A stretch of DNA of 64,000 nt from an uncultured Latescibacterota bacterium (GTDB taxonomy: Bacteria; Latescibacterota; UBA2968). The notes under the pieces were generated by a model that was not told the DNA's origin, searched no databases, and was given only the letters and a program-made list of their open reading frames with translations. This document shows positions 28,691 to 49,532 of the stretch, piece by piece. The position numbers were made by a program, and so were the translations under genes. Where the stretch lies: NCBI GenBank assembly GCA_951812755.1, contig OX638329.1, positions 5,030,522-5,094,521 of the forward strand, in the 5' to 3' direction. Numbering within the stretch: the stretch's first letter is position 1; each line of letters opens with the position of its first letter.

Positions 28691-28696
28691 ATACTC

Positions 28697-29923: not shown

Positions 29924-29943
29924 GTCGAAGCTCCTTAAATTCA

Positions 29944-30212: not shown

Positions 30213-30230
30213 ACTCACTACGATTTTCGA

Positions 30231-33200
30231 TCACCGCGATGCCGACCATAACACCTGCACAGGAATAGTCTGCGTGGCCGTTGTGCCTTCTGAAGAGGTC
30301 GCTGTCACCGTGATTTGGCACCCTTCCGTATGCAACAACGACGTATTATTGGGTGGATTGCTTGCCGCCGTGATTATCACTTTTGAACCCCTCACCCTTA
30401 CCGTCGCAATATCCGTATCAGATGATGTTGCACTGTAGGAGACGATGCTTGTATCATACTTCTTTATGAAGTTGTCGGACACGTTTACCTCGAAGGTAGG
30501 AATAGATGGGCTTAGCAGGAGCAAGACTTCCAATAGGGTGAGTGGTATCCCCCCCCTGTGCCTTAATAGGCTCACTTTTTCAATCTTGCCCTTAGGTAAA
30601 ACAGTCGGAGCGGTAAGCGGCGTATTTCTAAGCATTTCCCATTCTGTGCGCAGATTGTTTAGCCAGAAAGGAACGCTTCCCGTACGCAATGCGAGTTGGG
30701 CTTCAAAAAGAGAACTGGGTTTAACGGAAGCACCCTTGGACTCCAAAATGCCTGTATCACGACCAACAGGATCATTAACGCCGTGTATCCCAACAATTAT
30801 AGGTCTTACCCAAAAAGGATAACTCAAAAAAGAATAGTTTCCTTTGTGTTGTGCAGCTAACCTGTTGTAATTCCAGAGAACCAGGCGATTTAGATGATTG
30901 GGAGGTGTACCACCTCCGCTACTACCTTTGAGGTGTCCTCCGCTACAACGGTCCCAAAGATTATCGTAACTCGGGTTTGTCATATGAGCATCCATTTGTT
31001 GACCCGAATCCATATCAGAATAATAAAAAACATTACCAGAAGCATTATGAGTAATACTTGTACCATGATCGTAATTATCAGTATAAGCTGTAATATCCTC
31101 TATTAACCCTGTCCATATAGAATTTGCATTCTGAACTACAACTGAGTAGTGACCACGATTACCAGCAGTGGTAAGCTGATAGAGAGATATATTAGCACTA
31201 TTAACAGCTACATATGCTCTTACAACATTGATAAAAGAACAACGACGCATCCAGGAGTTGACACAATTACTAAAATTAACAGAAGTATAGCCTCCAAACC
31301 ACAACGACCTCTCTGCGTCAGATAGACCCGCGTCATTGAAAGCATGTGAATATCTCTTTAAGAATGACCCCTGAAAACATATATCTTCTATCCCTACTTC
31401 TTCAAGAGGAGAGAAAGTATGTATCGTAAAACCGTGAGTCGCATTGATAGGGGTCCGAATAGGCGAATGAAACCGAACTCGATTCCCACTTATTTCAGCA
31501 ATCTGATGAATCTCGTTTATTACAATCTCATTAGCGCGATCCCAGCCCCAGGAATCTTCAAAGTCGCCACGACTAAGAGGATGGAGATATTCATCGATAG
31601 CTGCCTGAGTGCTATTCTTCATTTTCATTCTGACCCACTGGCCGACAGATAATCGCGCTGTGCTTCTAACAGTAATCCAGTGAGATTCCCTATCAGAATC
31701 AGCATTTACTGTAGTAACCCTCTTGGCTGAAGAAGAAGCCCGGATACTAATCATCGTCGGAGTACCCCAAGGTACATTACCAACACCCTGATTGACTTGT
31801 CTGATAATTGTACCACCATCTCTACTGCCACTACCCCTCAACACTATATTACTACCTTCAATCGTGATAGATGAGTTACGATCAGCGGCGTTTTTATCAG
31901 CATCAGTAAAGACGAGAAATTCACCCGGTGGAAAGAAGACAATACCACTACCATTGTTCTCTGCTGCATCAATGGCTGCCTGGATAGCAGGCTGGTCAGA
32001 CTCGTTATCATCGGGGATGGCTCCATAATCTGTGACATCGAACATGGGATGCATGACATCGGGCACTGGCTCGCTGAAGTAGTGATAGCCCGCGTAGGAA
32101 AAATCGGGTAAAATGGGTACTGTGCCATTTCTCCTGGCCTCCACAAAGTTTACCCAGGTAGATGGCACGGCGGATGTGTATCCCAGAATTTCCGACCAGG
32201 GTCCACTAACCTTCTCGTTTCCTGCTCTAACCACCACCTTATAGACACTGTCATCCGGGGGCATGATGGTATATTCAAGACTGCCACTTGTCCACGCCTC
32301 GTCAAGGAAAGTCCAGTTGGCGATAACGCTCTCATCATCGCCGAGGCGAATATAGCGTATATCAAACTCGCTGATGCCAGAGGCATGAATATGAAATGGT
32401 GACTCCCAGGTGACTGTGAATTGTCCATTGCCAGGCTCCATGCTCAGGTTCCTCGGCATACCGAGTACACGCTGCGTACCAAATTCCTGATGGGTCGCCG
32501 TGCCGTCGGCATTGAAATCTACCTTCAAGATGGGATACCGGAACGCTCCAACGAGGGATGTCCCAAAGTGCCAGGGCGCATCAGCCATCTCATCACCTGT
32601 TACATCTTCGTCATCCCAGGTCGCATAAATACCAGAATATGATATCGGACCCCGTAACTCTGAGGCCGTCTTGCCCATTATATCCGAGCGTAAGGTACTA
32701 TTAGAAGATATTAGATTCGCTCCGTCGCCTTTGCTCTGACCGGTCACATCTATGTCCCAATAGCTGTCGCTGAATGTCGCTGTTGCACTGGGGGCACTCA
32801 TTCTACCGGCAAATCCACCAGTCCTATCTTCTATACTACCCGATACTCTGGTCGAAGTATAGCAGTTCACGACAGAGCCAGACCCTGCGTTCCACCCTAT
32901 CAAACCACCAGCGTTGCCACTCGTATTCACGCTTCCATATGCATAGCAGGCCAACAAAGTACCGTAATTCACTCCGACCAGGCCACCGCCACTCGTAGTG
33001 TTGTCTATACTTACCCGCGCGTAACTCGTGCGAATCGTGCCATTGTTCCGCCCTGCGAGACCACCCGCCCAATCCGTGGACTTCACCTGCCCCGTCACAT
33101 AACAGTTAGATATCTCACCAGACGTATTACCAACCAGGCCACCAACCGCGTCCCCACCACTTACATTGACATCAATGAGGCCCACGTTTTGAATCGTGCC

Positions 33201-36200
33201 TGAAAACGACCCGAACAGACCAGCCTGACTGAGTTGATCGACATACAGGTAGGAGATAGTATGTCCACCTCCCTGGAATATGGCAGTGAACTTGTGTGCA
33301 GATGTCCCAATAGGCTCCCAGCCTTCACCCCCGGCCCACCAGGCCCGGTTCACCCTGCCTGAGACATAGCTATCATAGTACTTGAAATCCAAATCCTCCA
33401 TCAGTTCATAGCCTATACAGCCAGATTGCGGGCAACCCATCCCAACAGGCGCCTCGGAAAATGCGCTGGCGTAAGCAACCTGATCAAGAGAAGGAACGTT
33501 GCCATCACCATCCATATCGTAGCGGATGGCGTTTAGTTGTTCCAGATAAGAAATCTCAATGAGACCATCATCGTCAGTGTCGTAGTCCATAGGACTCGTT
33601 ATCCCTGTGCCTGACTCAGACCACTCCCCTGTGCCTTCGGCATTATGCGCAAGCACCTGAACTTCATAGGTCGTGTTAGCCTGCAATGGGGTCAGCGTCG
33701 TGCTTGTGCCTGCGCCATCGTAATTCGCATCGGTGAATTCATCGCCGCTATCCTTGATACGGTATTGCACATCGTAATCGGTGATAGGAGGACCGGTGTT
33801 CTCTGGTGCTACCCAACTCCAGCGCAGGCTTGTGGATGAGACCGCTACCGCCACTGGTGCATCGGGCTTACCCGGTCTTTCCTCTACATCGGTCAGGTTG
33901 ATACTCACATTGATGCTTGCACCAAAACCCTGACGATCTAACACAGCGATTGTCACAAAATAGCTCTGCTGCGTCTCATAGTCGTAGGTAATACCGTGCT
34001 TCGTCAGAAGCTGACCACTCTTCTGTACGATGTCAAAATTATCTCGACCACTAACATTAAAGATAAAATAGCGCAGAGTCGCCTCATTCGGGTCCGTTGC
34101 AGCCACAGGGGCACCAATATTCTGTCCCCCCTCCGTGTTCTCGGCTAATTCGCGTGTGATTAAGTTTCCTTGTTCAACGAACGAGGGTTGGGCGTTAGTT
34201 CCGAGCCGCTTCCAAATACCTGGCTCAGACCACTCCCCATTCCCTTCGGCATTATTTGCGCGCACTCGAACTGCATAATCTTCGCCAGTTGACAAATCAC
34301 TGATTGTCGTGCTTGTGTGCATACCATCGTGGGTCCAGGGAGTGAAATTGTCACTGTTGCCCTCACTGTATTGCACATCGTAGTCGTCGATAGGAGGACC
34401 GGTGTTCTCTGGTGCTGTCCAGGTCACACTCAAATCTGTGGGCGGTGACCCTCTTAATACCGGTGCATCCGGCTTGCCGGGTGGCTCTGCTACATCGTTC
34501 AGAGTGATCGTCACGTCAATGGACGTCTCGCCATCCAGACCATCTGACACAACGGCCCTCACCGAATAGCTTGCCTTCTCCTCATAGTTGTAGGTAATAC
34601 CTGAACTCGTCAGAAGCTGACCATTTGTTTCATCAAAGGCGAAACTTTCTGCATCCGTCCCTTCAAGACGGTAGGTCAGTTCGTCTCCATCCATGTCTGT
34701 CGCAGCCATCGGTTCTCCAATGGCCTGTACCTCCACTGTGTTCTCGGCAAAGCTACGCGTGGTGCTCATCCCATCACTGAACGTCGGCACTTGATTCGCC
34801 TCAGTCATCCCTTCCCCTGAATCAGACCACTCCCCTATGCCTTCGGCATTACGCGCACTCACCTGAACTTCATAATTCGTGTTTGGGATCAACTCTGAAA
34901 TTGAGACAATTAAGTCCGTACCATTGTGCCTCGCGTCGGTGAAATCGTCGTTGGTGTCACTGAAACGATATTGCACATCGTAGTTGATGGCAAGAGGACC
35001 GGTGTTTTCTGGCACTGCCCAGGTCGCCCTCAAGCTCGTATGTGATACCGCTGCCACCGTTGGCGCATCCGGCTTGCCTGGTACCTCGTCGGGCTGGTTG
35101 AGCACTGCCACAGTAATCACCTGCTCCCGCGTCAGTTCTCGAACACCCACACCACTTGTCGCAGAGACCTCCACGATATACTCGTTGTTGCCAGCAATAT
35201 TCGGTGGAACAGTACTTGCAGTATCTGTGGGACGCTCAAAGTCAGGCACTGTCTGGAAGCTCAATACACCTGTATTTGGAACAATCGAGAACTTGTCCTG
35301 ATCCGCCCCGCCAGTAATCGCATAGCCCTCAATTCTGTCCTCGAGATCACTATCATTGGCAACCACCGTACCAACTGCCGTGTTATTCTCCACTACATTA
35401 AACTTCGCAGTACTGGTAAAAGACGGTCCAACGTTGTCATTCGTTATCCCCATACCCGACTCAGACCATTCCCCTGTGCCTTCGGCATTACGCGCAAGCA
35501 CCTGAAACTCATAGGTCGTGTTGGCCTGCAATGGGGTCAGCGTCGTGGTCAGATCCGTGCCATCATACTCCGCATCGGTAAATTCGTCGCCGCTACTATT
35601 GATACGGTATTGCACATCGTAGTCGGTAATCTCAGGACCCATGTTCTCTGGCACTCTCCAGGTCACCATCAAGCTGTTCATGGTTGCCGCGACCACTGTT
35701 GGTGCCATAGGCGCTGCAGGAGCCTCGTCCACATCAATCACCGTGATGATAAGCTCCTGGTTTGCCGTTCGTTCCCGGTCACCATCTCCACTCGTCGCCA
35801 TGACCAGCACGATATATGGGATTGCATCTCGTACCTCAAAGTTGGACGCTGTATTAATGCTCAACACACCTGTCGTTGGATCAATTGAGAACTTGTCCTG
35901 ATCGATTCCACCAATAATCACATAGCCGATGCTGTCACCGCTATCGTAATCCTCGGCAACCACTGTACCGACCTGTGTGGTATTTTCCTCTACATTGAAC
36001 ATCTCGCTACTGGTAAATCTCGGTGCGAAGTTGTCACTGGTTAGCCATATACCTGACCCAGACCAGTCTCCGGTCCCCTCATCATTCGTCGCACTTACCT
36101 GTACCTCATAGGCCTCGTTCAGTTCCAACTGTGTCAGCGTCACGGTCAGATGCGTGCCGTCGTGGCCCGCATCGGTGAAATCGCCGCCGCTGTTAAAGAT

Positions 36201-39200
36201 ACGATACTGCACATCGTAATCGGTGATAGGAGGACCCGTGTTCTCTGGCGCTGTCCAAGTCAGGGTCAAGCTCATGGATGAAGCCGCTGCCACCGTTGGG
36301 GCATCCGGCCTGCCTGGCACCTCGGTCTCATCCTTCACTGTCACTGTGATCGCCTGTGTCGCTGTCATTAACCGAGCACCTGCACCACCCGTCGCTGTGA
36401 CCTCCACAACATACGTGTTGTTACCATCCACATCCCCTGCAACCTCATAGTTGGGGGCTGTCTTAAAACTCAACGCACCTGTTTCTGACACAATCGAGAA
36501 CTTATTCTGATCGTCCCCACCAGTAAGCGCGTAGCTCGTGATGCTATCATCTGCATCCACATCTTCAGCGACCACTTTTCCGACTGATGGCTCATTTTCT
36601 GCCACCTCGAAGGACGCTGCACTGCTGAAAATTGGTGCCTCATTCACATCCATCACCGTTACCTTGATCGTATCGCGTGCTGTGAGTTCCCGATCACCCA
36701 TCCCACCCGTCGCCGTGACATACACGATGTATTCATTGTTATCCGCTGCATTGACCGGGTCGGTCACGGCCACATCGGTCGGCATCTCGAAGTTCGGGGC
36801 TACCTTGAAGGTCAATACACCAGTCTGATCATCAATCTCAAACTGTCCCCCATCTGCACCCGTAGCAATACCATAACTTTCTATATCATCACCTGTATCT
36901 GCATCACTCGCACTGACCGTCACGATATCCGCTGTGCTGTTCTCATTCACACTGATTGCTGATACGCTCGTGAACACGGGGGCAACATTGGCTGATGTCA
37001 TCTTTTCAAGCGTATCTGACCAGTCACTTTCCCCTTCACCGCTCTTTGCACGCACCTGTATATCATAGCTCGTGTTCTGAGTCAAAGGCGATATGGTGTA
37101 TTCCAAAGCACCTCCATTAACACTGGTCCAGACATCAAGCTTATCTGTCCAGTTGGTATCTATCGCTTTGTGCTCACTCGTTTCACTGCTCAGGATATAG
37201 CGTACATCATAAGCCGTGATAGGAGGACCGGTGTTCGTCGGTTCACTCCAACTGATCTTCAGACTGTTCATCGTTGCTTCTGCTATCGTCGGTGCAGCAG
37301 GCTTACCTGGCGCTTCCCCATCCACATCAGTTACTGTCACCTTGATCGTATCACTTGCTGTGAGTTCCCGATCACTCGTCCCACCTGTCGCAGACACGAT
37401 CACGATGTATTCATTATTCTCCGCCGCATTGGATGGATCGGTAACCGCAACATCCTTCGCATCCTCATAGTTGGGAGCTACATTGAAGCTCAATGCACCG
37501 GTAGATGCATCAATATCAAACTGTGACCCATCTGCATCAGTAACAATACCATAGCCCGTGACACTGTCATCAGTATCGGCATCCATCGCACTCACCGTGA
37601 CGATGGCCCCTGTGCTGTTCTCATTCACACTGATTGGCGAGACAGCAGTGAAAACAGGCGCCTCATTCTCATCCACCACACTCACTGTGATCGCCTGTGT
37701 TGCCGTCATTAACCGAGCACCTGCACCACCCGTCGCTGTCACCTCCACAACATACGTGTTGTTACCATCCACATCCCCTGCAACCTCATAGTTGGGGGCT
37801 GTCTTAAAACTCAACGCACCTGTTTCTGACACAATCGAGAACTTATTCTGATCGTCCCCACCAGTAAGCGTATAACCTGTGATGCTATCCTCACTATCCA
37901 CATCTTCTGCGACCACTGTGCCGACTGAGGGCTCATTTTCTGCCACCTCGAAGGATGCTGCACTGCTAAAGACCGGTGCCTCATTCACATTTGTCACTGT
38001 CACTGTAAGTGTATCGCTCGCTGTGAGTGCCCGATCACCTGTCCCACCCGTCGCCGTGACATACACGATGTATTCATTGTTATCCGCTGCATTGGATGGA
38101 TCGGTCACGGCCACATCAGTAGGATCTTCATAGTTGGGTGCTACCTTGAAGGTCAACACACCCGTAGATGCACCAATAGAGAACTGCTCCCCATCTGCAC
38201 CCGTAGCAATACCATAACTTTCTATATCATCACCCGTATCTGCATCCATCGCACTGACCGTCACGATATCTGCCGTGCTGTTCTCATTCACAGAAATTGG
38301 CGAGATAGCTGTAAAGACCGGGGCTTGATTCACGCCTGTCTTCCCTACACGAGTATCGGACCACTCACTCATCCCTTCCGCACTCTTTGCTCTCACCTGA
38401 ACATCGTAAGAAGTATTGGGAGCCAACGAGCTAATCGTGTATTCAAGTGCACCACTCGTCCAAGCATTCTTCTGCACTGTCCATTTATCATCATCTGCCT
38501 TATCCTCGTCACTGGCACTCGTCAGAATGTGGCGCACATCATAAGCCTTAATAGGGGGTCCTGTGTTCGTCGGTTCACTCCAACTGATCTTCAGACTGTT
38601 CACCGTTGAGGCTGCTATCGTCGGGGTAGCAGGCTTACCCGGTGCTTCTCCATCCACATCCATCACGGTCACCTTGATTGTATCGCGTGCTGTGAGTTCC
38701 CGATCACCCATCCCACCTGTCGCAGACACGATCACGATGTATTCATTATTGTTGGCATCATTGTTGTTAGCCGAATTGTCAGGGTCAGTAAATGCAACAT
38801 CCTTCGCATCCTCATAGTTGGGAGCGGCACTGAAGCTCAACGCACCGGTAGATACATCAATCTCAAACTGCTCCCCATCTGCACCCGTAGCAATACCATA
38901 ACTTTCTATATCATCACTCGTATCTGCATCCATCGCACTCACCGTCACAATATCCGCTGTGATATTCTCACTCACAGTGAACGATGATGCACTCGTGATA
39001 ACTGGTGCCACATTCGCACGCGTTGTCCCTGCTACTGTATCTGACCAGTCGCTCATCCCTTCCGCACTCTTTGCACGCACTTGCATATCATAGGAAGTGT
39101 TGGGGTCCAAACCATCAATCGTGTATTCAAGCGCACCGCTCGTCCAGGCATCCGTCTCTACCGTCCAATTATCATCATCTGTCTCATCTGCACTGCTCAG

Positions 39201-42200
39201 GATATAGCGTATATCATAAGCCGTGATAGGAGGACCTGTGTTCGTCGGGGCTGTCCATTGCACCTTCAAGCTATTCAATGTTGCTTCTGCCACCGTCGGC
39301 ATAGCAGGCTTACCCGGTGCTTCCCCATCCACATCTGTCACTGTCACTGTAAGTGTATCTCTTCCTGTCAAGACACGATCACCTGTCCCACTCGTCGCAG
39401 AGATGATCACGATATATTCATTATTGTTGGCATTATTGTTGTTGGCTGAATTAGTAGCATCAGTAAAGGCAACATCGGTGGGCATCTCATAGTTGGGAGC
39501 GGCATTGAAACTCAATGCACCGGTAGATACATCAATATCAAACTGTGACCCATCTGCATCAGGAACAATACCGTAGCCCGTTACACTGTCATCAGTATCT
39601 GCATCCATCGCACTCACGGTCACAATAGCCCCTGTGCTGTTCTCATTCACAGAAATCGGCGATATGTCGGTGATGACCGGTTCCTCGTTCTCATCTTTCA
39701 CATTCACTGTGATCGCCTGTGTCGCTGTCATTAACCGAGCATCTGCTCCCCCTGTTGCTGTGACCTCCACAAGGTACGTGTTGTTACCATCCACATCCCC
39801 TGCAACCTCATAGTTGGAGGCTGTCTTAAAGCTCAAGGCACCTGTTTCTGACACAATCGAGAACTTATTCTGATCGTCCCCACCAGTAAGCGCGTAGCTC
39901 GTGATGCTGTCCTCACTATCCTCATCTTCTGCAACCACTGTGCCGACTGATGGCTTATTTTCAGCCACTTCAAAGGACCCTGCACTGCTGAAGACCGGTG
40001 CCTCATTCTCATCCGTCACTGTCACCTTGATCGTATCGCTTGCTGTCAGCACTCGTGCATCCTCTCCGCCTGTCGCCATGACAAATACGATGTACTCATT
40101 ATTCCCCGCTGCATTGGATGGATTACTAACTGCGACATCCTTGGCATCCTCAAAGTTGGGGGCTACCTTGAACGTTAGCACACCTGAAGTGGTGCCTATA
40201 TCGAACTGTGTCCCATCGGCAGCGTTGGTATCAATGGTATAACTCTCAATCTCGTCATCATCATCGGCATCTGTCGCACTCACGGTAACTATAGCGGCAA
40301 CGCTGTTCTCATCTACTGACTGCGGTGGGACAGCCACGAAGACAGGTGCCTGATTCTGCGTTGTCGTCCCCACCACAGTATCAGACCACGCACTCATCCC
40401 TTCAGCGTTCTCTGCGCGAACCTGAATATCGTAATCCGTGTTCTGGTCTAATGGACTGATCGTATATTCAAGCGCACCGCTCGTCCAGGCATCCGTCTCT
40501 ACCGTCCAATTATCATCATCTGTCTCATCTGCACTCGTCAGGATATAGCGTACATCATAAGCCGTGATAGGAGGACCTGTGTTCGTCGGTTCACTCCAAC
40601 TGATCTTCAGACTGTTCATCGTTGCTTCTGCTATCGTCGGTGCAGCAGGCTTACCCGGTGCTTCCCCATCCACATCTGTCACTGTCACTGTAAGTGTATC
40701 TCTTCCTGTCAAGACACGATCACCTGTCCCACTCGTCGCAGAGATGATCACGATATATTCATTATTGTTGGCATCATTGTTGTTGGCTGAATTAGTAGCA
40801 TCAGTAAAGGCAACATCGGTGGGCATCTCATAGTTGGGAGCTACACTGAAGCTCAATGCACCGGTAGATACATCAATATCAAACTGTGACCCATCTGCAT
40901 CAGTAACAATGCCATAGCCCGTGACACTGTCATCGGTATCGGCATCCATCGCTCTCACGGTCACAATGGCCGTGGTGATATTCTCATTCACACTGATCGG
41001 TGAGACAGCAGCGAAGACCGGCGCCTCATTCTCATCCACCACACTCACTGTGATCGCCTGTGTTGCCGTCATTAACCGAGCACCTGCTCCCCCTGTCGCT
41101 GTCACCTCCACAAGGTACGTGTTGTTACCATCCACATCCCCTGCAACCTCATAGTTGGGGGCTGTCTTAAAACTCAACGCACCTGTTTCTGACACAATCG
41201 AGAACTTATTCTGATCGTCCCCACCAGTAAGCGTATAACCTGTGATGCTATCATCTGCATCCACATCTTCAGCGACCACTGTGCCGACTGAGGGCTTATT
41301 TTCAGCCACTTCAAAGGACCCTGCACTGCTGAAGACCGGTGCCTCATTCTCATCCGTCAAGCTGATTGTCACTGCAATCGTCACACTGCCACCCTGACCA
41401 TCCTCTACTTTCACACGCACCGAATACTCATCCTTCGTCTCATAGTCATACGTAACATTGGCCTTCGTCTCAAGCTGACCACTCGTTGAAACAATGCTGA
41501 AACTCTCCTTATCTGTCCCCTCAAGACTATAGGTCAGCGTGCCCCCATCGTTGTCTGTCGCTCCCACAGGGGTCCCAATGTTCTCGTCCGCTGCGGTGTT
41601 CTCTGCAAAACTGCGCGTCGTGCTTGTCCCATCGGTGAATGTCGGTGCTTGATTCGCGTTGGTTATCCCCTCACCCGACTCAGACCACTCACTTTCCCCT
41701 TCATCGCTCTTTGCACGCACCTGCACTTCATACGTCGTATTGGTAGCCAACTGTGTCAGCATCGTGCTCTGATCCGTGCCATCATACTCTGTATCGGTGA
41801 AATTATCACCGCTGTTCTTAATGCGGTATTGTACATCGTAGTCGGTGATCGCAGGACCCGTGTTCGTCGGCTTACTCCAACTCACCTTCAGACTGTTCAA
41901 TGTGGCTTCTGCTATTGTCGGTGCAGCGGGCTTTCCAGGCGGTTCAGTCACATCCTTCACTGTTACAGTAAGTGTGTCTCTCACCGTCAGGGCATGTGCA
42001 CCTGCACCTCCTGTCGCAGACACGATCACGATATACTCATTATTCTTCTCCTCACTGTCGTAGGTCGGATTGTCAGGATCAGTAAATTCAACATCCTTGG
42101 GCTCTTCATAGTTCGGTGCGGCATTGAAGGTCAACGCACCCGTCTGTGCTACACTGGAGAACGTGATCGAGAACTGTGACCCATCAGCGCCTGCAACAAT

Positions 42201-45200
42201 GTCATACCCTGTGATGTCATCCTCATTATCTGCGTCTGTTGCACTCACCAAGACAATGATCCCTGTGCTGTTCTCGTCCACTCTAAAGGCTGATACACTC
42301 GTGAACACAGGGGCCACATTAGCCTCTGTCGTCCCGACAACCATATCTGACCAGGCACCTTCTCCTTCAGCATTCTTTGCTCGCACCTGTATATCATAGC
42401 TCGTGTTCTGAGTCAAAGGCGATATGGTGTATTCCAAAGCACCTCCATTAACACTGGTCCAGACATCAAACTTATCTGTCCAGTTGGTATCTATCGCTTT
42501 GTGCTCACTCGTTTCACTGCTCAGGATATAGCGTACATCATAAGCCGTGATAGGAGGACCGGTGTTCGTCGGTTCACTCCAACTGATCTTCAGACTGTTC
42601 ATCGTTGCTTCTGCTATCGTCGGTGCAGCAGGCTTACCTGGCGCTTCCCCATCCACATCAGTTACTGTCACCTTGATCGTATCACTTGCTATGAGTTCCC
42701 GATCACTCGTCCCACCTGTCGCAGACACGATCACGATATATTCATTATTGTTGGCATCATTGTTGTTGGCTGAATTAGTAGCATCGGTAAAGGCAACATC
42801 GGTGGGCATCTCATAGTTGGGAGCGGCACTGAAGCTCAATGCACCGGTAGATACATCAATATCAAACTGTGACCCATCTGCATCAGTAACAATACCATAG
42901 CCCGTGACACTGTCATCAGTATCTGCATCCATCGCTCTCACGGTGACGATGGCCCCTGTGCTGTTCTCACTCACACTGATTGGCGAGACAGCAGCGAAAA
43001 CAGGCGCCTCATTCTCATCCACCACACTCACGGTGATTGCCTGTGGTGCCGTCATTAACCGAGCACCTGCACCACCCGTCGCTGTCACCTCCACAACATA
43101 CGTGTTGTTACCATCCACATCCCCTGCAACCTCATAGTTGGGGGCTGTCTTAAAACTCAACGCACCTGTTTCTGACACAATCGAGAACTTATTCTGATCG
43201 TCCCCACCCGTAAGCGTATAACCTGTGATGCTATCCTCACTATCCACATCTTCTGCGACCACTGTGCCGACTGAGGGCTCATTTTCTGCCACCTCGAAGG
43301 ATGCTGCACTGCTGAAGACCGGTGCCTCATTCACATTTGTCACTGTCACTGTAAGTGTATCGCTCGCTGTGAGTGCCCGATCACCTGTCCCACCCGTCGC
43401 CGTGACATACACGATGTATTCATTATTCTCCGCTGCATTGGATGGATCGGTCACGGCCACATCAGTAGGATCTTCATAGTTGGGTGCTACCTTGAAGGTC
43501 AACACACCCGTAGATGCACCAATAGAGAACTGCTCCCCATCTGCACCCGTAGCAATACCATAACTTTCTATATCATCACTCGTATCTGCATCCATCGCAC
43601 TCACCGTCACAATATCCGCTGTGATATTCTCACTCACAGTGAACGATGATGCACTCGTGATAACTGGTGCCACATTCGCACGCGTTGTCCCTGCTACTGT
43701 ATCTGACCAGTCGCTCATCCCTTCCGCACTCTTTGCACGCACTTGCATATCATAGGAAGTGTTGGGGTCCAAACCATCAATCGTGTATTCAAGCGCACCG
43801 CTCGTCCAGGCATCCGTCTCTACCGTCCAATTATCATCATCTGTCTCATCTGCACTCGTCAGGATATAGCGTACATCATAAGCCGTGATAGGAGGACCTG
43901 TGTTCGTCGGGGCTGTCCATTGCACCTTCAAGCTATTCAATGTTGCTTCTGCCACCGTCGGCATAGCAGGCTTACCCGGTGCTTCCCCATCCACATCTGT
44001 CACTGTCACTGTAAGTGTATCTCTTCCTGTCAAGACACGATCACCTGTCCCACTCGTCGCAGAGATGATCACGATATATTCATTATTGTTGGCATTATTG
44101 TTGTTGGCTGAATTAGTAGCATCAGTAAAGGCAACATCGGTGGGCATCTCATAGTTGGGAGCGGCATTGAAACTCAATGCACCGGTAGATACATCAATAT
44201 CAAACTGTGACCCATCTGCATCAGGAACAATACCGTAGCCCGTTACACTGTCATCGGTATCTGCATCCATCGCTCTCACGGTCACAATGGCTGTGGTGAT
44301 ATTCTCATTCACACTAATCGGCGAGACAGCAGTGAAAACAGGCGCCTCATTCTCATCCACCACACTCACTGTGATCGCCTGTGTTGCCGTCATTAACCGA
44401 GCACCTGCACCACCCGTCGCTGTGACCTCCACAACATACGTGTTGTTACCATCCACATCCCCTGCAACCTCATAGTTGGGGGCTGTCTTAAAACTCAACG
44501 CACCTGTTTCTGACACAATCGAGAACTTATTCTGATCGTCCCCACCAGTAAGCGCGTAGCTCGTGATGCTATCATCTGCATCCACATCTTCAGCGACCAC
44601 TTTTCCGACTGATGGCTCATTTTCTGCCACCTCGAAGGACGCTGCACTGCTGAAAATTGGTGCCTCATTCACATCCATCACCGTTACCTTGATCGTATCG
44701 CGTGCTGTGAGTTCCCGATCACCCATCCCACCCGTCGCCGTGACATACACGATGTATTCATTGTTATCCGCTGCATTGACCGGGTCGGTCACGGCCACAT
44801 CGGTCGGCATCTCGAAGTTCGGGGCTACCTTGAAGGTCAATACACCAGTCTGATCATCAATCTCAAACTGTCCCCCATCTGCACCCGTAGCAATACCATA
44901 ACTTTCTATATCATCACCTGTATCTGCATCACTCGCACTGACCGTCACGATATCCGCTGTGCTGTTCTCATTCACACTGATTGCTGATACGCTCGTGAAC
45001 ACGGGGGCAACATTGGCTGATGTCATCTTTTCAAGCGTATCTGACCAGTCACTTTCCCCTTCACCGCTCTTTGCACGCACCTGTATATCATAGCTCGTGT
45101 TCTGAGTCAAAGGCGATATGGTGTATTCCAAAGCACCTCCATTAACACTGGTCCAGACATCAAGCTTATCTGTCCAGTTGGTATCTATCGCTTTGTGCTC

Positions 45201-48200
45201 ACTCGTTTCACTGCTCAGGATATAGCGTACATCATAAGCCGTGATAGGAGGACCGGTGTTCGTCGGTTCACTCCAACTGATCTTCAGACTGTTCATCGTT
45301 GCTTCTGCTATCGTCGGTGCAGCAGGCTTACCTGGCGCTTCCCCATCCACATCAGTTACTGTCACCTTGATCGTATCACTTGCTGTGAGTTCCCGATCAC
45401 TCGTCCCACCTGTCGCAGACACGATCACGATGTATTCATTATTGTTGGCATCATTGTTGTTGGCTGAATTAGTAGCATCGGTAAAGGCAACATCGGTGGG
45501 CATCTCATAGTTGGGAGCGGCACTGAAGCTCAATGCACCGGTAGATACATCAATATCAAACTGTGACCCATCTGCATCAGTAACAATACCATAGCCCGTG
45601 ACACTGTCATCGGTATCTGCATCCATCGCTCTCACGGTCACAATGGCTGTGGTGATATTCTCATTCACACTGATCGGTGAGACAGCAGCGAAGACCGGCG
45701 CCTCATTCTCATCCACCACACTCACTGTGATCGCCTGTGTTGCCGTCATTAACCGAGCACCTGCACCACCCGTCGCTGTCACCTCCACAACATACGTGTT
45801 GTTACCATCCACATCCCCTGCAACCTCATAGTTGGGGGCTGTCTTAAAACTCAACGCACCTGTTTCTGACACAATCGAGAACTTATTCTGATCGTCCCCA
45901 CCAGTAAGCGCGTAGCTCGTGATGCTGTCATCTGCATCCACATCTTCAGCGACCACTGTGCCGACTGAGGGCTTATTTTCAGCCACTTCAAAGGACCCTG
46001 CACTGCTGAAGACCGGTGCCTCATTCTCATCCGTCAAGCTGATCGTCACTGCAATCGTCACACTGCCACCCTGACCATCCTCTACTTTCACACGCACCGA
46101 ATACTCATCCTTCGTCTCATAGTCATACGTAACATTGGCCTTCGTCTCAAGCTGACCACTCGTTGAAACAATGCTGAAACTCTCCTTATCTGTCCCCTCA
46201 AGACTATAGGTCAGCGTGCCCCCATCGTTGTCTGTCGCTCCCACAGGGGTCCCAATGTTCTCGTCCGCTGCGGTGTTCTCTGCAAAACTGCGCGTCGTGC
46301 TTGTCCCATCGGTGAATGTCGGTGCTTGATTCGCGTTGGTTATCCCCTCACCCGACTCAGACCACTCACTTTCCCCTTCATCGCTCTTTGCACGCACCTG
46401 CACTTCATACGTCGTATTGGTAGCCAACTGTGTCAGCGTCGTGCTCTGATCCGTGCCATCATACTCTGCATCGGTGAAATTATCACCGCTGTTCTTAATG
46501 CGGTATTGTACATCGTAGTCGGTGATCGCAGGACCCGTGTTCGTCGGCTTACTCCAACTCACCTTCAGACTGTTCAATGTGGCTTCTGCTATCGTCGGTG
46601 CAGCGGGCACACCTGGTGCTTCCCCATCCACATCCGTCACTGTCACCTTGATCGTATCGCGTGCTGTTAGTGCCCGATCACTCGTCCCACCTGTCGCAGA
46701 CACGATCACGATGTATTCATTATTGTTGGCATCATTGTTGTTGGCTGAATTAGCGGCATCGGTAAAAGCAACATCGGTGGGCATCTCATAGTTCGGGGCG
46801 GCATTGAAACTCAATACCCCAGTCTGATCATCTATCAAGAACTGTGCCTCGTCAGCACCTGGAACAATACCGTAGTCAGTGACACTGTCCTTATTATCTG
46901 CATCTTCGGCGACCACCTTGCCGACACTTGTGCTATTTTCCCGGACATCAAACGTCGCGCTACTGATGAAACGCGGCGACTGATTGACCGGTTCTACCGC
47001 GATGGAGAATAGTAGTTCGATCGTGTTTTCGTCCCCATCTGTCGCTCTCCATTTATATTCCGTTGTCTCTATTGCAACCGTCGGCGTACCGCTAATCGTA
47101 CGCGTCTCGCCATCCAGCACCAGACCGTCAGGCAGTGCCGGCGTGAGCGTATAGCCAATTATACCCGTCCCGCCCGTCGCTTCGGGCAGTTGGATATCGT
47201 CAATCTCTCTCCCGGCCGTATAAGTCTGAGCAGGCACTGTCGCACCACCAAAGCTCAGTTTCACATCCGCCTTGTTCACCGTCACTGCTATGGTCTGCTC
47301 CGCAGTCTGATTCGAACCCGCAGCATCTCGCGCAGTCACAGTAACCGTCGCTGTGCCCTCAGCCACAGGCGTGAGCGTCACTACAGAATCCGACACATCC
47401 ACCTTTGCAATGGCTTCATCACTCGACACGACCTCATAGGTCAAAACATCGTTATCAGGATCAGAGAACTTGCCCGATACATCAACTCTCACGCCTTCAT
47501 CACCCACCCTCAACGTCTGTGCTTCAAACCTTCCCACCGCCACTGGCGTGCGGTTGGTTCTCACACCAACCCCAAAGAGTGAGAACATATCGGTATAACC
47601 GCAGACCACATCGTTATCTACGCGCTGCCTCTCGAGTAATTCCCAGGCACTCGCCCCCTCATCGTAGTGAACAACCATAGGACCAGAAATATCTCCAGGC
47701 ACAGGCAAACAGATCTCCACAGACGCTTGCAACGCATCACCGATATTAACGTCTCGGCTATTGACTCGAACCATCAACTCTATATCAAAAAGCGATGAAC
47801 TACCGGGAATGGTAAATCCTGCTTGAGGAGGAACATCCGCTGCATCGGAAACCGCAACCACGACGCCTTCTGCGAAGACCCCCTCAACCTCCTCCTGCGG
47901 GATAGTAGCAGGAAGATCCGCTTGCGTGACGACGATTTTACCCCCTTCACCAGTGACAGGGGACAGATCAATAATCGCATAGCCATCCTGAAACTGCACA
48001 AGCTTCGGTTCCTCTTTGGGTGGCGTATAGACTGGTATGCCCGAAACAGGCTCAGACCATTCGCTTGCACCATCAGAATTATAGGCGCGAACTCGAACCT
48101 GATATAATTGACCATTTTCCAGGAAGCTGTTTTGATACCGAGGCACATCTATTTTATGATAGTAAACAGACGTATTCGTACGACCATAGATCGTCTTGCG

Positions 48201-49409
48201 GGTTCCCCAGGGACCCTTCTCTCCCCTGCGAATCTCAGCATGATACCCCCTTACTGGCGGCCTCCCCCGCTCATCAGGCACCGCAGCGTAGTGGACGGTG
48301 AGGGACTCGTTGTCCGGAATGACCAGAAAGTTCGACGGTGACGAAGAAGGCGGTTCTTTCAAATCGTTAATTTTGATGATCACCAAAAGACGCGCTGTCC
48401 CCCCCTGCCCATCGCTCGCCTCAACAATTACGGAGTAGGTCGTCCGATGTTCATAGTCATACGTGATGCCTTCCTTTGTCTGAAGCTGACCCGTGCCTGC
48501 GTCAAAGACAAAAAGATCTACATCCGTACCACTGAGGTGGTAGGTCACAATATTGCCGTCAGCATCCGTGGCAGAGATGGGATCACCTATCGGTTCACCC
48601 CCCGGCGTGTTCTCATCTATAAAGTATGTCACATAAGTCTTGGACGTGAAGACCGGTGCGCGATTCACCCATTTGCCATAGCTCTGGATAAAAATCAAAT
48701 AATCCTCTACCCCAATCGCACCATCGCCATTCAGGTCGTATTTGACCTCATAATGCTCTTGTCCCACACGAGAGCCAAACCCCTTGTTGAACAGCAAAAG
48801 GTCTTGTAAATCCACAAACCCACTTCCATCAAAATCTGGGGAAGGCAGCACAGCGACCTGTAACGCGACACGTACATTCAACACAGCACTTTCAACTTGC
48901 CCGTCCCGATCAAGCTGGGCACGCACCAATAGAATCTCTGTGTTTGAAAAAGCATCTGTTGTGCGAAAACGAATCGTGCCGATAAGACCGCTGTTGACCG
49001 TTGCAGCCCCACTCAAAGACGCTATGTCGATCTCAACAGAGGTAGGATTTGTACCCTCTTCTACACGCACATCGGGATCTGGCAACACATCACCCGCATC
49101 AAATCCTGAATAAACAACTTGAGTGGCATTGTATTCAAAACGCGCAGAAAGACGGCTAACAGACCGTATGGAATCATTACGGGCCCTGCTTTGAATACCT
49201 GTACCAAAAATCTGAATAGAAACATCCTGATTGGGGGATACATCAAGAGACTGGACAGCCTGGTCACCTTCAGACTCGTCTAAATCCAGAAGAAGGGAAA
49301 AGCTATTGGTCTGTGAGAGGAGAGAAAACGTTTGAATAAACAAAGCGATAAATATAATCCCAAAGACTAACGGTAGTAACGAGCGCACAGAAAATAATGA
49401 TCTGGGCAT
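30231..49409 (-). CDS. Giant secreted multidomain protein (cadherin/FN3/GLUG/parallel beta-helix), 6392 residues
   Basis: One uninterrupted frame starting at ATG 49409 with TAAAGG upstream. Approximate order: signal peptide (1-35); cohesin-like domain (35-185); dockerin-like calcium pair, DFDGSGFVDLQDLLLF and DLNGDGAIGVEDYLIF (188-245); one cadherin; one FN3; an unrecognised region; Ig-like segments (613-806). An array of about 27 cadherin-like domains (SFEVAENEPSVG, calcium loops DADTDD) and 14 FN3 domains (NTGPPITAYDVRY) then runs to about 5270. GLUG-like repeats (5283-5590), one FN3, a pectate-lyase-type beta-helix (5750-6270; DYGAIPDDNESDQPAIQAAI) and a short Ig-like end follow. It is probably a calcium-stiffened surface protein that presents a glycan-binding or glycan-cleaving tip. 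No sorting domain was recognised at the C-terminus. Confidence 0.9.
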   Translation of the reverse strand: MPRSLFSVRSLLPLVFGIIFIALFIQTFSLLSQTNSFSLLLDLDESEGDQAVQSLDVSPNQDVSIQIFGTGIQSRARNDSIRSVSRLSARFEYNATQVVYSGFDAGDVLPDPDVRVEEGTNPTSVEIDIASLSGAATVNSGLIGTIRFRTTDAFSNTEILLVRAQLDRDGQVESAVLNVRVALQVAVLPSPDFDGSGFVDLQDLLLFNKGFGSRVGQEHYEVKYDLNGDGAIGVEDYLIFIQSYGKWVNRAPVFTSKTYVTYFIDENTPGGEPIGDPISATDADGNIVTYHLSGTDVDLFVFDAGTGQLQTKEGITYDYEHRTTYSVIVEASDGQGGTARLLVIIKINDLKEPPSSSPSNFLVIPDNESLTVHYAAVPDERGRPPVRGYHAEIRRGEKGPWGTRKTIYGRTNTSVYYHKIDVPRYQNSFLENGQLYQVRVRAYNSDGASEWSEPVSGIPVYTPPKEEPKLVQFQDGYAIIDLSPVTGEGGKIVVTQADLPATIPQEEVEGVFAEGVVVAVSDAADVPPQAGFTIPGSSSLFDIELMVRVNSRDVNIGDALQASVEICLPVPGDISGPMVVHYDEGASAWELLERQRVDNDVVCGYTDMFSLFGVGVRTNRTPVAVGRFEAQTLRVGDEGVRVDVSGKFSDPDNDVLTYEVVSSDEAIAKVDVSDSVVTLTPVAEGTATVTVTARDAAGSNQTAEQTIAVTVNKADVKLSFGGATVPAQTYTAGREIDDIQLPEATGGTGIIGYTLTPALPDGLVLDGETRTISGTPTVAIETTEYKWRATDGDENTIELLFSIAVEPVNQSPRFISSATFDVRENSTSVGKVVAEDADNKDSVTDYGIVPGADEAQFLIDDQTGVLSFNAAPNYEMPTDVAFTDAANSANNNDANNNEYIVIVSATGGTSDRALTARDTIKVTVTDVDGEAPGVPAAPTIAEATLNSLKVSWSKPTNTGPAITDYDVQYRIKNSGDNFTDAEYDGTDQSTTLTQLATNTTYEVQVRAKSDEGESEWSESGEGITNANQAPTFTDGTSTTRSFAENTAADENIGTPVGATDNDGGTLTYSLEGTDKESFSIVSTSGQLETKANVTYDYETKDEYSVRVKVEDGQGGSVTIAVTISLTDENEAPVFSSAGSFEVAENKPSVGTVVAEDVDADDSITSYALTGGDDQNKFSIVSETGALSFKTAPNYEVAGDVDGNNTYVVEVTATGGAGARLMTATQAITVSVVDENEAPVFAAVSPISVNENITTAIVTVRAMDADTDDSVTGYGIVTDADGSQFDIDVSTGALSFSAAPNYEMPTDVAFTDATNSANNNDANNNEYIVIVSATGGTSDRELTASDTIKVTVTDVDGEAPGKPAAPTIAEATMNSLKISWSEPTNTGPPITAYDVRYILSSETSEHKAIDTNWTDKLDVWTSVNGGALEYTISPLTQNTSYDIQVRAKSGEGESDWSDTLEKMTSANVAPVFTSVSAISVNENSTADIVTVSASDADTGDDIESYGIATGADGGQFEIDDQTGVLTFKVAPNFEMPTDVAVTDPVNAADNNEYIVYVTATGGMGDRELTARDTIKVTVMDVNEAPIFSSAASFEVAENEPSVGKVVAEDVDADDSITSYALTGGDDQNKFSIVSETGALSFKTAPNYEVAGDVDGNNTYVVEVTATGGAGARLMTATQAITVSVVDENEAPVFTAVSPISVNENITTAIVTVRAMDADTDDSVTGYGIVPDADGSQFDIDVSTGALSFNAAPNYEMPTDVAFTDATNSANNNNANNNEYIVIISATSGTGDRVLTGRDTLTVTVTDVDGEAPGKPAMPTVAEATLNSLKVQWTAPTNTGPPITAYDVRYILTSADETDDDNWTVETDAWTSGALEYTIDGLDPNTSYDMQVRAKSAEGMSDWSDTVAGTTRANVAPVITSASSFTVSENITADIVTVSAMDADTSDDIESYGIATGADGEQFSIGASTGVLTFKVAPNYEDPTDVAVTDPSNAAENNEYIVYVTATGGTGDRALTASDTLTVTVTNVNEAPVFSSAASFEVAENEPSVGTVVAEDVDSEDSITGYTLTGGDDQNKFSIVSETGALSFKTAPNYEVAGDVDGNNTYVVEVTATGGAGARLMTAPQAITVSVVDENEAPVFAAVSPISVSENSTGAIVTVRAMDADTDDSVTGYGIVTDADGSQFDIDVSTGALSFSAAPNYEMPTDVAFTDATNSANNNDANNNEYIVIVSATGGTSDRELIASDTIKVTVTDVDGEAPGKPAAPTIAEATMNSLKISWSEPTNTGPPITAYDVRYILSSETSEHKAIDTNWTDKFDVWTSVNGGALEYTISPLTQNTSYDIQVRAKNAEGEGAWSDMVVGTTEANVAPVFTSVSAFRVDENSTGIIVLVSATDADNEDDITGYDIVAGADGSQFSITFSSVAQTGALTFNAAPNYEEPKDVEFTDPDNPTYDSEEKNNEYIVIVSATGGAGAHALTVRDTLTVTVKDVTEPPGKPAAPTIAEATLNSLKVSWSKPTNTGPAITDYDVQYRIKNSGDNFTDTEYDGTDQSTMLTQLATNTTYEVQVRAKSDEGESEWSESGEGITNANQAPTFTDGTSTTRSFAENTAADENIGTPVGATDNDGGTLTYSLEGTDKESFSIVSTSGQLETKANVTYDYETKDEYSVRVKVEDGQGGSVTIAVTISLTDENEAPVFSSAGSFEVAENKPSVGTVVAEDVDADDSITGYTLTGGDDQNKFSIVSETGALSFKTAPNYEVAGDVDGNNTYLVEVTATGGAGARLMTATQAITVSVVDENEAPVFAAVSPISVNENITTAIVTVRAMDADTDDSVTGYGIVTDADGSQFDIDVSTGALSFSVAPNYEMPTDVAFTDATNSANNNDANNNEYIVIISATSGTGDRVLTGRDTLTVTVTDVDGEAPGKPAAPTIAEATMNSLKISWSEPTNTGPPITAYDVRYILTSADETDDDNWTVETDAWTSGALEYTISPLDQNTDYDIQVRAENAEGMSAWSDTVVGTTTQNQAPVFVAVPPQSVDENSVAAIVTVSATDADDDDEIESYTIDTNAADGTQFDIGTTSGVLTFKVAPNFEDAKDVAVSNPSNAAGNNEYIVFVMATGGEDARVLTASDTIKVTVTDENEAPVFSSAGSFEVAENKPSVGTVVAEDEDSEDSITSYALTGGDDQNKFSIVSETGALSFKTASNYEVAGDVDGNNTYLVEVTATGGADARLMTATQAITVNVKDENEEPVITDISPISVNENSTGAIVTVSAMDADTDDSVTGYGIVPDADGSQFDIDVSTGALSFNAAPNYEMPTDVAFTDATNSANNNNANNNEYIVIISATSGTGDRVLTGRDTLTVTVTDVDGEAPGKPAMPTVAEATLNSLKVQWTAPTNTGPPITAYDIRYILSSADETDDDNWTVETDAWTSGALEYTIDGLDPNTSYDMQVRAKSAEGMSDWSDTVAGTTRANVAPVITSASSFTVSENITADIVTVSAMDADTSDDIESYGIATGADGEQFEIDVSTGALSFSAAPNYEDAKDVAFTDPDNSANNNDANNNEYIVIVSATGGMGDRELTARDTIKVTVMDVDGEAPGKPATPTIAASTVNSLKISWSEPTNTGPPIKAYDVRHILTSASDEDKADDDKWTVQKNAWTSGALEYTISSLAPNTSYDVQVRAKSAEGMSEWSDTRVGKTGVNQAPVFTAISPISVNENSTADIVTVSAMDADTGDDIESYGIATGADGEQFSIGASTGVLTFKVAPNYEDPTDVAVTDPSNAADNNEYIVYVTATGGTGDRALTASDTLTVTVTNVNEAPVFSSAASFEVAENEPSVGTVVAEDVDSEDSITGYTLTGGDDQNKFSIVSETGALSFKTAPNYEVAGDVDGNNTYVVEVTATGGAGARLMTATQAITVSVVDENEAPVFTAVSPISVNENSTGAIVTVSAMDADTDDSVTGYGIVTDADGSQFDIDASTGALSFNVAPNYEDAKDVAVTDPSNAAENNEYIVIVSATGGTSDRELTASDTIKVTVTDVDGEAPGKPAAPTIAEATMNSLKISWSEPTNTGPPITAYDVRYILSSETSEHKAIDTNWTDKLDVWTSVNGGALEYTISPLTQNTSYDIQVRAKSGEGESDWSDTLEKMTSANVAPVFTSVSAISVNENSTADIVTVSASDADTGDDIESYGIATGADGGQFEIDDQTGVLTFKVAPNFEMPTDVAVTDPVNAADNNEYIVYVTATGGMGDRELTARDTIKVTVMDVNEAPIFSSAASFEVAENEPSVGKVVAEDVDADDSITSYALTGGDDQNKFSIVSETGALSFKTAPNYEVAGDVDGNNTYVVEVTATGGAGARLMTATQAITVTVKDETEVPGRPDAPTVAAASSMSLTLTWTAPENTGPPITDYDVQYRIFNSGGDFTDAGHDGTHLTVTLTQLELNEAYEVQVSATNDEGTGDWSGSGIWLTSDNFAPRFTSSEMFNVEENTTQVGTVVAEDYDSGDSIGYVIIGGIDQDKFSIDPTTGVLSINTASNFEVRDAIPYIVLVMATSGDGDRERTANQELIITVIDVDEAPAAPMAPTVVAATMNSLMVTWRVPENMGPEITDYDVQYRINSSGDEFTDAEYDGTDLTTTLTPLQANTTYEFQVLARNAEGTGEWSESGMGITNDNVGPSFTSTAKFNVVENNTAVGTVVANDSDLEDRIEGYAITGGADQDKFSIVPNTGVLSFQTVPDFERPTDTASTVPPNIAGNNEYIVEVSATSGVGVRELTREQVITVAVLNQPDEVPGKPDAPTVAAVSHTSLRATWAVPENTGPLAINYDVQYRFSDTNDDFTDARHNGTDLIVSISELIPNTNYEVQVSARNAEGIGEWSDSGEGMTEANQVPTFSDGMSTTRSFAENTVEVQAIGEPMAATDMDGDELTYRLEGTDAESFAFDETNGQLLTSSGITYNYEEKASYSVRAVVSDGLDGETSIDVTITLNDVAEPPGKPDAPVLRGSPPTDLSVTWTAPENTGPPIDDYDVQYSEGNSDNFTPWTHDGMHTSTTISDLSTGEDYAVRVRANNAEGNGEWSEPGIWKRLGTNAQPSFVEQGNLITRELAENTEGGQNIGAPVAATDPNEATLRYFIFNVSGRDNFDIVQKSGQLLTKHGITYDYETQQSYFVTIAVLDRQGFGASINVSINLTDVEERPGKPDAPVAVAVSSTSLRWSWVAPENTGPPITDYDVQYRIKDSGDEFTDANYDGAGTSTTLTPLQANTTYEVQVLAHNAEGTGEWSESGTGITSPMDYDTDDDGLIEISYLEQLNAIRYDMDGDGNVPSLDQVAYASAFSEAPVGMGCPQSGCIGYELMEDLDFKYYDSYVSGRVNRAWWAGGEGWEPIGTSAHKFTAIFQGGGHTISYLYVDQLSQAGLFGSFSGTIQNVGLIDVNVSGGDAVGGLVGNTSGEISNCYVTGQVKSTDWAGGLAGRNNGTIRTSYARVSIDNTTSGGGLVGVNYGTLLACYAYGSVNTSGNAGGLIGWNAGSGSVVNCYTSTRVSGSIEDRTGGFAGRMSAPSATATFSDSYWDIDVTGQSKGDGANLISSNSTLRSDIMGKTASELRGPISYSGIYATWDDEDVTGDEMADAPWHFGTSLVGAFRYPILKVDFNADGTATHQEFGTQRVLGMPRNLSMEPGNGQFTVTWESPFHIHASGISEFDIRYIRLGDDESVIANWTFLDEAWTSGSLEYTIMPPDDSVYKVVVRAGNEKVSGPWSEILGYTSAVPSTWVNFVEARRNGTVPILPDFSYAGYHYFSEPVPDVMHPMFDVTDYGAIPDDNESDQPAIQAAIDAAENNGSGIVFFPPGEFLVFTDADKNAADRNSSITIEGSNIVLRGSGSRDGGTIIRQVNQGVGNVPWGTPTMISIRASSSAKRVTTVNADSDRESHWITVRSTARLSVGQWVRMKMKNSTQAAIDEYLHPLSRGDFEDSWGWDRANEIVINEIHQIAEISGNRVRFHSPIRTPINATHGFTIHTFSPLEEVGIEDICFQGSFLKRYSHAFNDAGLSDAERSLWFGGYTSVNFSNCVNSWMRRCSFINVVRAYVAVNSANISLYQLTTAGNRGHYSVVVQNANSIWTGLIEDITAYTDNYDHGTSITHNASGNVFYYSDMDSGQQMDAHMTNPSYDNLWDRCSGGHLKGSSGGGTPPNHLNRLVLWNYNRLAAQHKGNYSFLSYPFWVRPIIVGIHGVNDPVGRDTGILESKGASVKPSSLFEAQLALRTGSVPFWLNNLRTEWEMLRNTPLTAPTVLPKGKIEKVSLLRHRGGIPLTLLEVLLLLSPSIPTFEVNVSDNFIKKYDTSIVSYSATSSDTDIATVRVRGSKVIITAASNPPNNTSLLHTEGCQITVTATSSEGTTATQTIPVQVLWSASR
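33600..46990 (-). repeat. Mosaic of near-identical long repeats encoding cadherin-cadherin-FN3 blocks
   Basis: Within the giant gene, blocks recur at DNA level. About 36400-37390 matches 44425-45415 (offset 8025), 39000-39590 matches 43660-44250 (offset about 4662), 37860-38200 matches 43206-43546 (offset 5346), and 41320-41990 matches 45997-46620 (offset about 4677). Different offsets show a mosaic rather than a simple tandem array. Repeats nearer the C-terminus (33600-36300) are clearly more diverged. Confidence 0.85.
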
Positions 49410-49498
49410 GCTGTGCCTTTACATTAAGTCATCCACCAATCCATCATAGTGTTCAAAACAACTTATTTTATAGAGGCTTTTGGTTGCGGGCCCCAGAA

Positions 49499-49521: not shown

Positions 49522-49532
49522 ATATCTCCGCA

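What the first reader, a model, noticed from the sequence alone, without database searches (positions are those of the whole stretch)
30231..49409. 6392-residue secreted protein with recently shuffled DNA repeats
The N-terminal half of the cadherin/FN3 array contains long blocks nearly identical at DNA level with several different spacings (about 8025, 5346, 4677 and 4662 bases), while the C-terminal part of the array is diverged. This indicates repeated recent unequal recombination or conversion within one gene, yet the 19-kb frame stays open. Such a gene should vary in length between strains.
Basis: seen in the sequence. Interest (0 to 1): 0.65.

Follow-up and report, generated by a model that had tools for sequence, protein, structure and literature searches.

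The report
Giant protein gene with self-recombining repeats
A bacterium of the Latescibacterota group carries a 19,000-base gene for a very long secreted protein whose repeats keep overwriting one another, and which has also exchanged sequence with a sister giant gene 4 million bases away that has the same front end but a different tail.

Summary
One minus-strand frame (49409→30231, 6392 aa) carries 23 cadherin-like and 14 FN3 domains. Multi-domain DNA blocks in it are 94–100% identical, at the stated spacings (8025: 1055/1055 bases). Intragenic recombination is supported: domain copies resemble each other more than their counterparts in a paralogous giant (5837 aa, same 6.53-Mb contig, 3.99 Mb away).
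New here:
(1) The two giants share a 939-bp tract with 6 mismatches, inside sequence with synonymous divergence 0.63 and 0.26. The tract is the less conserved part in a sister species (64% against 73–74%), so it reflects ectopic conversion rather than constraint.
(2) The shared head carries different tails: pectate-lyase-like β-helix plus DUF4955 here, leucine-rich repeats in the paralogue.
(3) The paralogue and a sister-species homologue sit behind a propeller/σ54-activator gene and a perfect −24/−12 promoter. Here that regulator is a 350-bp remnant beside an IS, and the promoter is gone.
The sister-species homologue has a roughly threefold shorter middle, but in a fragmented assembly. Strain-level length variation and assembly artefact cannot be tested here. 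A new variant of a known kind (giant repeat surface protein), moderately interesting.

The parts
30231..49409 (-). Giant ORF, 6392 aa, secreted multidomain protein
49320..49409 (-). N-terminal hydrophobic segment, signal peptide or signal anchor (residues 1-30)
   Evidence: Kyte-Doolittle scan
48840..49319 (-). Cohesin-like domain (residues 31-190)
   Evidence: weak Pfam match for this copy (E 0.031); 3 of 16 family members match Cohesin, best E 4.4e-4
48687..48836 (-). Dockerin type I domain (residues 192-241)
   Evidence: Pfam E 1.4e-5; family profile hits cellulosomal dockerins in the PDB, best E 1.6e-10
47847..48785 (-). Conversion tract shared with the paralogous giant (gene nt 625-1563; 939 bp, 6 mismatches)
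36327..46976 (-). Homogenised cadherin/FN3 array (residues 812-4361), mainly FN3-cad-cad-cad super-modules of about 1340 bp
44389..45443 (-). Repeat block A of spacing 8025, identical to 36364-37418
   Evidence: 1055/1055 bp
36364..37418 (-). Repeat block B of spacing 8025
45433..46592 (-). Repeat block A of spacing 4677 (98.3% to 40756-41915)
40756..41915 (-). Repeat block B of spacing 4677
43528..44255 (-). Repeat block A of spacing 4662 (99.6% to 38866-39593)
38866..39593 (-). Repeat block B of spacing 4662
42830..43601 (-). Repeat block A of spacing 5346 (98.2% to 37484-38255)
37484..38255 (-). Repeat block B of spacing 5346
33609..36317 (-). Diverged FN3/cadherin part of the array (residues 4365-5267)
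32460..33602 (-). GLUG-repeat region
   Evidence: Pfam Glug
30600..32147 (-). Pectate-lyase/epimerase-like beta-helix plus DUF4955 tail (residues 5755-6270)
   Evidence: Pfam; homologues; 31 of 34 invariant polar residues of the family kept
30184..30213 (-). Intrinsic-terminator-like hairpin after the giant gene, identical to 51038-51067 after the DUF1961 gene
49461..49812 (-). Broken remnant of a propeller/sigma-54-activator regulator gene directly upstream of the giant (internal deletion, frame change, stop)
49925..51026 (-). IS element with 8-bp target duplication AGGTAAAT and inverted ends GAGGGTTGTGCATAA; second copy, 94% identical, at C1:433736

Best explanation
The gene encodes a very long secreted rod: a cohesin-like and dockerin head, about 37 cadherin/FN3 domains, and a polysaccharide-active beta-helix tail. 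Shown from sequence: its repeats evolve in concert by in-frame homologous recombination within the gene (conversion and probably unequal crossover), and part of its head was homogenised with a paralogous giant 3.99 Mb away by conversion or an equivalent ectopic exchange. Inferred: homology between repeats lets copies be exchanged and array length change while the frame stays open, because all partners are in register by codons and dN is well below dS in most block pairs. Inferred: the head plus array is a chassis on which different tails are placed (lyase-like here, leucine-rich repeats in the paralogue, a separately derived lyase in a sister species). Inferred: the chassis normally sits in a cassette with a soluble propeller/sigma-54 activator and a -24/-12 promoter. 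This copy has lost both, so it is silent or expressed from another promoter. The likely role is binding and processing an extracellular polysaccharide at a distance from the cell; this last part is inference only (my confidence in it alone is about 0.45).
For: Mosaic of partner offsets with breakpoints inside domains. Trees: 7 copies of cadherin type A in this gene form a supported group (100/98) apart from the paralogue's 4; label changes 9 against 19.1 in shuffles for cadherins and 3 against 12.1 for FN3. dS medians within this gene against this gene versus paralogue: 0.21 vs 0.61, 0.51 vs 1.02, 0.29 vs 0.90 for three cadherin types. Tract: 939 bp with 6 mismatches, flank dS 0.63 and 0.26, score 182 against a maximum of 58 in 2000 permutations. 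Tract protein identity to G006 is 64%, flanks 73-74%. Paralogue with LRR tail. Lyase tails of this gene and G006 not one clade (AU p 0.01). Ten regulator loci outside the window hold 12 of the 58 perfect -24/-12 sites of the genome. No such site within 600 bp upstream of this ORF.
Against: No reads or second strain were available, so repeat order and copy number rest on one assembly. For FN3 domains the within-gene dS median (0.81) is close to the between-gene one (0.91), so homogenisation there is patchy. Conversion and unequal crossover cannot be separated inside the array. I found no characterised enzyme for the tail's family, and the structure prediction failed (pLDDT 34). The cohesin assignment is weak.
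Confidence: 0.72

Rival explanations
1. Assembly artefact: the repeat order, identical blocks or shared tract come from misassembly or consensus smoothing of a repetitive gene.
For: No reads were available; 1055-bp perfect repeats are the kind of sequence that short reads cannot place; estimated contamination is 3.7%.
Against: The genome is one 6.53-Mb contig, 99.58% complete, which implies long reads (inference). Both giant frames are open over 19.2 and 17.5 kb. Most blocks are not identical but differ, largely at synonymous sites, which smoothing would not make. The tract ends lie within unique head sequence, not in the array.
Confidence: 0.1
2. Only tandem segmental duplication: the array grew by a few recent multi-domain duplications, without conversion.
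For: Long collinear blocks (for example 1160 bp at 4677) and super-modules of about 1340 bp with constant order.
Against: Neighbouring blocks point to partners in non-collinear order (7495-8654, then 11992-13046, then 9817-10544, then 11155-11926). A conversion-like tract exists between two genes 3.99 Mb apart, which tandem duplication cannot make.
Confidence: 0.15
3. The 939-bp tract came from outside: both giants, or one of them, received the segment by homologous recombination with DNA of a related cell rather than from each other.
For: Sequence exchange between genera and intragenic recombination in the population diversify the giant genes of Apilactobacillus kunkeei (PMC12863079).
Against: It needs two imports of the same segment or one import plus a conversion; the direct exchange is simpler (inference).
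Confidence: 0.12
4. Protein-level constraint keeps the blocks and the tract alike, with no recombination.
For: dN is below dS in most block pairs.
Against: Synonymous sites are also identical (0 differences over 242 sites in the 8025 block; dS 0.01 in the tract). The tract is less conserved than its flanks between species (64% against 73-74%).
Confidence: 0.02

Closest known systems
Giant1-5 surface proteins of Apilactobacillus kunkeei (PMC12863079)
   Same: Very large secreted proteins with an N-terminal signal, a long internal repeat region and a distinct end domain; diversified by recombination.
   Different: There the paralogous giants of one genome are under 20% identical and showed no recent gene conversion between them. 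Here two giants of one genome share a 939-bp tract at 99.4%. Repeats there are mainly alpha-helical in Giant1-3; here they are cadherin/FN3.
Bacterial cadherin-domain and FN3-array surface adhesins (general knowledge)
   Same: Tandem cadherin and FN3 domains with a DENEAPVF-type linker, N-terminal signal.
   Different: No known anchor or C-terminal secretion signal was identified here; the head has a dockerin and the tail is a beta-helix enzyme-like domain.
Cellulosome cohesin-dockerin systems
   Same: Dockerin type I domain in the head; the family profile hits cellulosomal dockerins first. Stand-alone relatives of the tail lyase carry an N-terminal dockerin-like segment too.
   Different: Cohesin-like and dockerin domains lie in the same protein, and the pair recurs in dozens of proteins of the genome; no scaffoldin with many cohesins was sought.
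Hybrid two-component regulators of Bacteroides polysaccharide loci (Reg_prop/Y_Y_Y sensors; general knowledge; PMC3243724 is one paper that uses these domain names)
   Same: Reg_prop propeller plus Y_Y_Y domain next to carbohydrate-active genes.
   Different: Here the output is a sigma-54 activator AAA+ domain in a protein with no predicted membrane segment, paired with -24/-12 promoters.

Membership tests
Giant repeat surface protein (A. kunkeei type and similar) | Very long ORF with N-terminal secretion signal and internal domain array | tested here: met
Giant repeat surface protein (A. kunkeei type and similar) | Surface location | not testable with these tools
   only an N-terminal hydrophobic segment is seen
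Concertedly evolving repeat gene | Copies within a gene more alike than counterparts in a paralogue or orthologue | tested here: met
   (clear for cadherin types A, B and C, patchy for FN3)
Concertedly evolving repeat gene | Length variation between strains | not testable with these tools
   only one genome per species; cross-species difference
Ectopic gene conversion | Tract of high identity with sharp ends between paralogues, not explained by constraint | tested here: met
Cohesin-dockerin (cellulosomal) component | Dockerin type I domain | tested here: met
Cohesin-dockerin (cellulosomal) component | Cohesin domain | tested here: inconclusive
   E 0.031 for this copy; 3 of 16 family members, best 4.4e-4
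Cohesin-dockerin (cellulosomal) component | Assembly with a partner through cohesin-dockerin binding | not testable with these tools
   needs a binding assay
Polysaccharide lyase/epimerase beta-helix | Homology to Pect-lyase_RHGA_epim | tested here: met
   Pfam; weak PDB matches to mannuronan epimerases and other chains
Polysaccharide lyase/epimerase beta-helix | Family-conserved polar residues kept | tested here: met
   31 of 34 kept; which of them are catalytic is unknown
Polysaccharide lyase/epimerase beta-helix | Enzyme activity and substrate | not testable with these tools
   no characterised close relative found; structure model failed

The most novel reading that the evidence does not exclude
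A dispersed cassette system: a propeller/sigma-54 activator, a -24/-12 promoter and a giant cohesin-like/dockerin/cadherin/FN3 chassis move and duplicate as a unit around the chromosome. Recombination keeps the heads alike across megabases while arrays are resized and tails (lyase, leucine-rich repeat) are exchanged, so one genome presents interchangeable long extracellular proteins under separate sensors. Copies cut off from their regulator, such as this one, may serve as silent donors of sequence.
Probability: 0.2. Interest if true: 0.75.

Novelty: new variant of a known kind. Interest (0 to 1): 0.47.

Why it matters
It gives a measurable case of gene conversion between two giant surface-protein genes of one bacterium, with a natural control (the tract is the less conserved part between species). 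If the cassette reading holds, it points to a way for uncultured bacteria to renew long extracellular proteins while keeping frame and regulation. It also warns that array lengths of such genes in fragmented metagenome assemblies cannot be taken at face value.

Tried and rejected
First coordinate choices were out of frame. Structure of the tail from a three-sequence alignment: unusable (pLDDT 33.8), so no fold search was run. DUF4955 literature: no papers. Latescibacteria with cohesin/dockerin literature: nothing useful. Papers on repeat-length variation: none by these terms. The first sigma-54 scan used a misplaced core offset and found nothing; corrected and independently. A single fusion origin for the lyase tails of this gene and G006 was rejected by the AU test (p 0.01), with a long branch as caveat. 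The idea that the IS removed the regulator was dropped: the IS has its own intact 8-bp target duplication, so the deletion is probably a separate event. The 30-bp repeat flanking the segment was first taken as an insertion scar; it is a terminator-like hairpin.

Full report
WHAT WAS CHECKED. The frame 49409→30231 on the minus strand is open for 6392 codons.

ANATOMY. Residues 1–30 are hydrophobic (signal peptide or anchor). Residues 31–190 are cohesin-like (weak) and 192–241 a dockerin. One cadherin-like and one FN3 domain, an unassigned region, a Big_9-like and a He_PIG domain follow. The array has 23 high-scoring cadherin and 14 high-scoring FN3 domains, mostly as FN3-cad-cad-cad super-modules of about 1340 bp. 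Then come GLUG repeats, another FN3, a pectate-lyase/epimerase-like β-helix with DUF4955, and a short end domain.

WHERE IT IS. The window is C1:5030522–5094521 of a genome in one 6,530,187-bp contig, 99.58% complete. A genome of the same genus (G004) matches contig for contig the record JAJEDY01, titled Candidatus Latescibacterota bacterium (L018, G060), so the organism belongs to that group under that name. Nothing in the evidence tells its habitat.

A SECOND GIANT. At C1:1075058–1092571 lies a 5837-aa paralogue with the same head and its own cadherin/FN3 array, but with a leucine-rich-repeat tail. It is the control that the single gene lacks. In trees of the domains, the copies of each gene cluster together although cadherin subtypes are shared: 9 label changes for cadherins against a shuffled mean of 19.1, 3 for FN3 against 12.1, none as low in 200 shuffles. 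Median dS within this gene against between genes is 0.21/0.61, 0.51/1.02 and 0.29/0.90 for the three cadherin subtypes, but only 0.81/0.91 for FN3. So homogenisation is real and uneven.

CONVERSION BETWEEN THE GIANTS. Between gene nt 625 and 1563 the two giants differ at 6 of 939 bases, four of them adjacent. Just upstream dS is 0.63, downstream 0.26, in the tract 0.01. The segment score is 182 against at most 58 in 2000 permutations. The tract is not a conserved stretch: against the sister-species homologue in G006 it is 64% identical, its flanks 73–74%. Ectopic gene conversion is the simplest cause; import from a related cell is the rival.

INSIDE THE ARRAY. Successive stretches find their best partner at offsets 4677, 8040, 1356, 2694, 8025, 4662, 5346 and so on, with switches inside domains. 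The order of partners is not collinear, so a few tandem duplications do not suffice. Conversion and unequal crossover cannot be told apart here. Among the eight long block pairs measured, dN is below dS in six, one has no differences and one (three differences) is the reverse, which fits selection on the protein.

LENGTH. The G006 homologue has the head, a shorter array and a lyase-type tail cut by the contig end. Head to tail is about 1.6 kaa, against about 4.9 kaa here. This agrees with length change, but G006 is in about 50 contigs and its array could be collapsed. Only three of eleven genomes of the genus, this one included, carry the head region at E ≤ 1e-50. No second strain was available.

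TAILS. The tail family exists as stand-alone proteins, often behind a dockerin-like segment, with one inside the window at 51938–53662. This gene's tail is the longest branch of the family but keeps 31 of 34 invariant polar residues. The G006 tail groups with a stand-alone protein of G005 (100/99), and one clade with this tail is rejected (AU p 0.01; long branches are a caveat). So the tails were probably joined or replaced separately.

REGULATION. The paralogue, and the homologous loci in G006, G004 and G003, lie next to a regulator of Reg_prop propeller, Y_Y_Y and σ54-activator domains, with no predicted membrane segment. The genome has ten loci of it outside the window (two of them broken), which hold within 1.2 kb 12 of the 58 perfect TTGGCAC-N5-TTGC sites; the reversed control pattern has none. 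By simple proportion of length about 0.5 would be expected there (my arithmetic). The paralogue and G006 have such a site between regulator and giant. In the window the giant's own regulator is reduced to fragments at 49461–49812 (residues 79–116 and 298–372 of the intact one), and no −24/−12 site lies within 600 bp upstream. An IS with its own 8-bp target duplication sits just beyond. Whether this copy is expressed is unknown; σ70-like sites exist but prove nothing. Beyond the regulator, the G006 and paralogue loci share no neighbours among the best matches of the stretches compared, which suggests that regulator and giant travel together.

WHAT IT DOES. Inference from the parts: a long secreted rod that carries a polysaccharide-acting domain and may dock with other dockerin/cohesin-bearing proteins. 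No enzyme activity, surface location or binding was shown. The structure attempt failed.

NOVELTY. Giant repeat surface proteins that evolve by recombination are known. In A. kunkeei the giants of one genome showed no recent conversion among themselves (PMC12863079). Recent exchange between two giants of one genome, shared heads with different tails, and loss of a dedicated σ54 cassette make this a new variant, not a new kind.

Noticed in passing
ten loci of genome contig C1 outside the window; window 54042-57308: A family of soluble propeller/Y_Y_Y/sigma-54-activator regulators, each one outside the window with a perfect -24/-12 site within 1.2 kb; the window copy has only a one-mismatch site at 57344-57359.
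   Followed up: partly
G000:C1 about 6290708-6319087; G008:C1:4853510-4884358: Even larger or similar open frames: 8739 and 4913 aa in the same genome, 10886 aa in G008.
   Followed up: no
window 48660-49325 and dozens of places in the genome: The cohesin-like plus dockerin head recurs in dozens of proteins of the genome, and parts of the head are matched in all 21 genomes searched.
   Followed up: partly
window 49925-51026: IS with 8-bp target duplication and a transposase in two frames; the 94% identical copy at C1:433736 has the same interruption, so it may be a programmed frameshift.
   Followed up: partly
window 30184-30213 and 51038-51067: Identical 30-bp terminator-like hairpin after the giant gene and after the DUF1961 gene.
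   Followed up: partly
window 25302-29944 and 51093-53662: Neighbours that suggest carbohydrate use: Gfo/Idh oxidoreductase, amidohydrolase, SDR, beta-helix protein, DUF1961 protein, stand-alone lyase-like protein.
   Followed up: no
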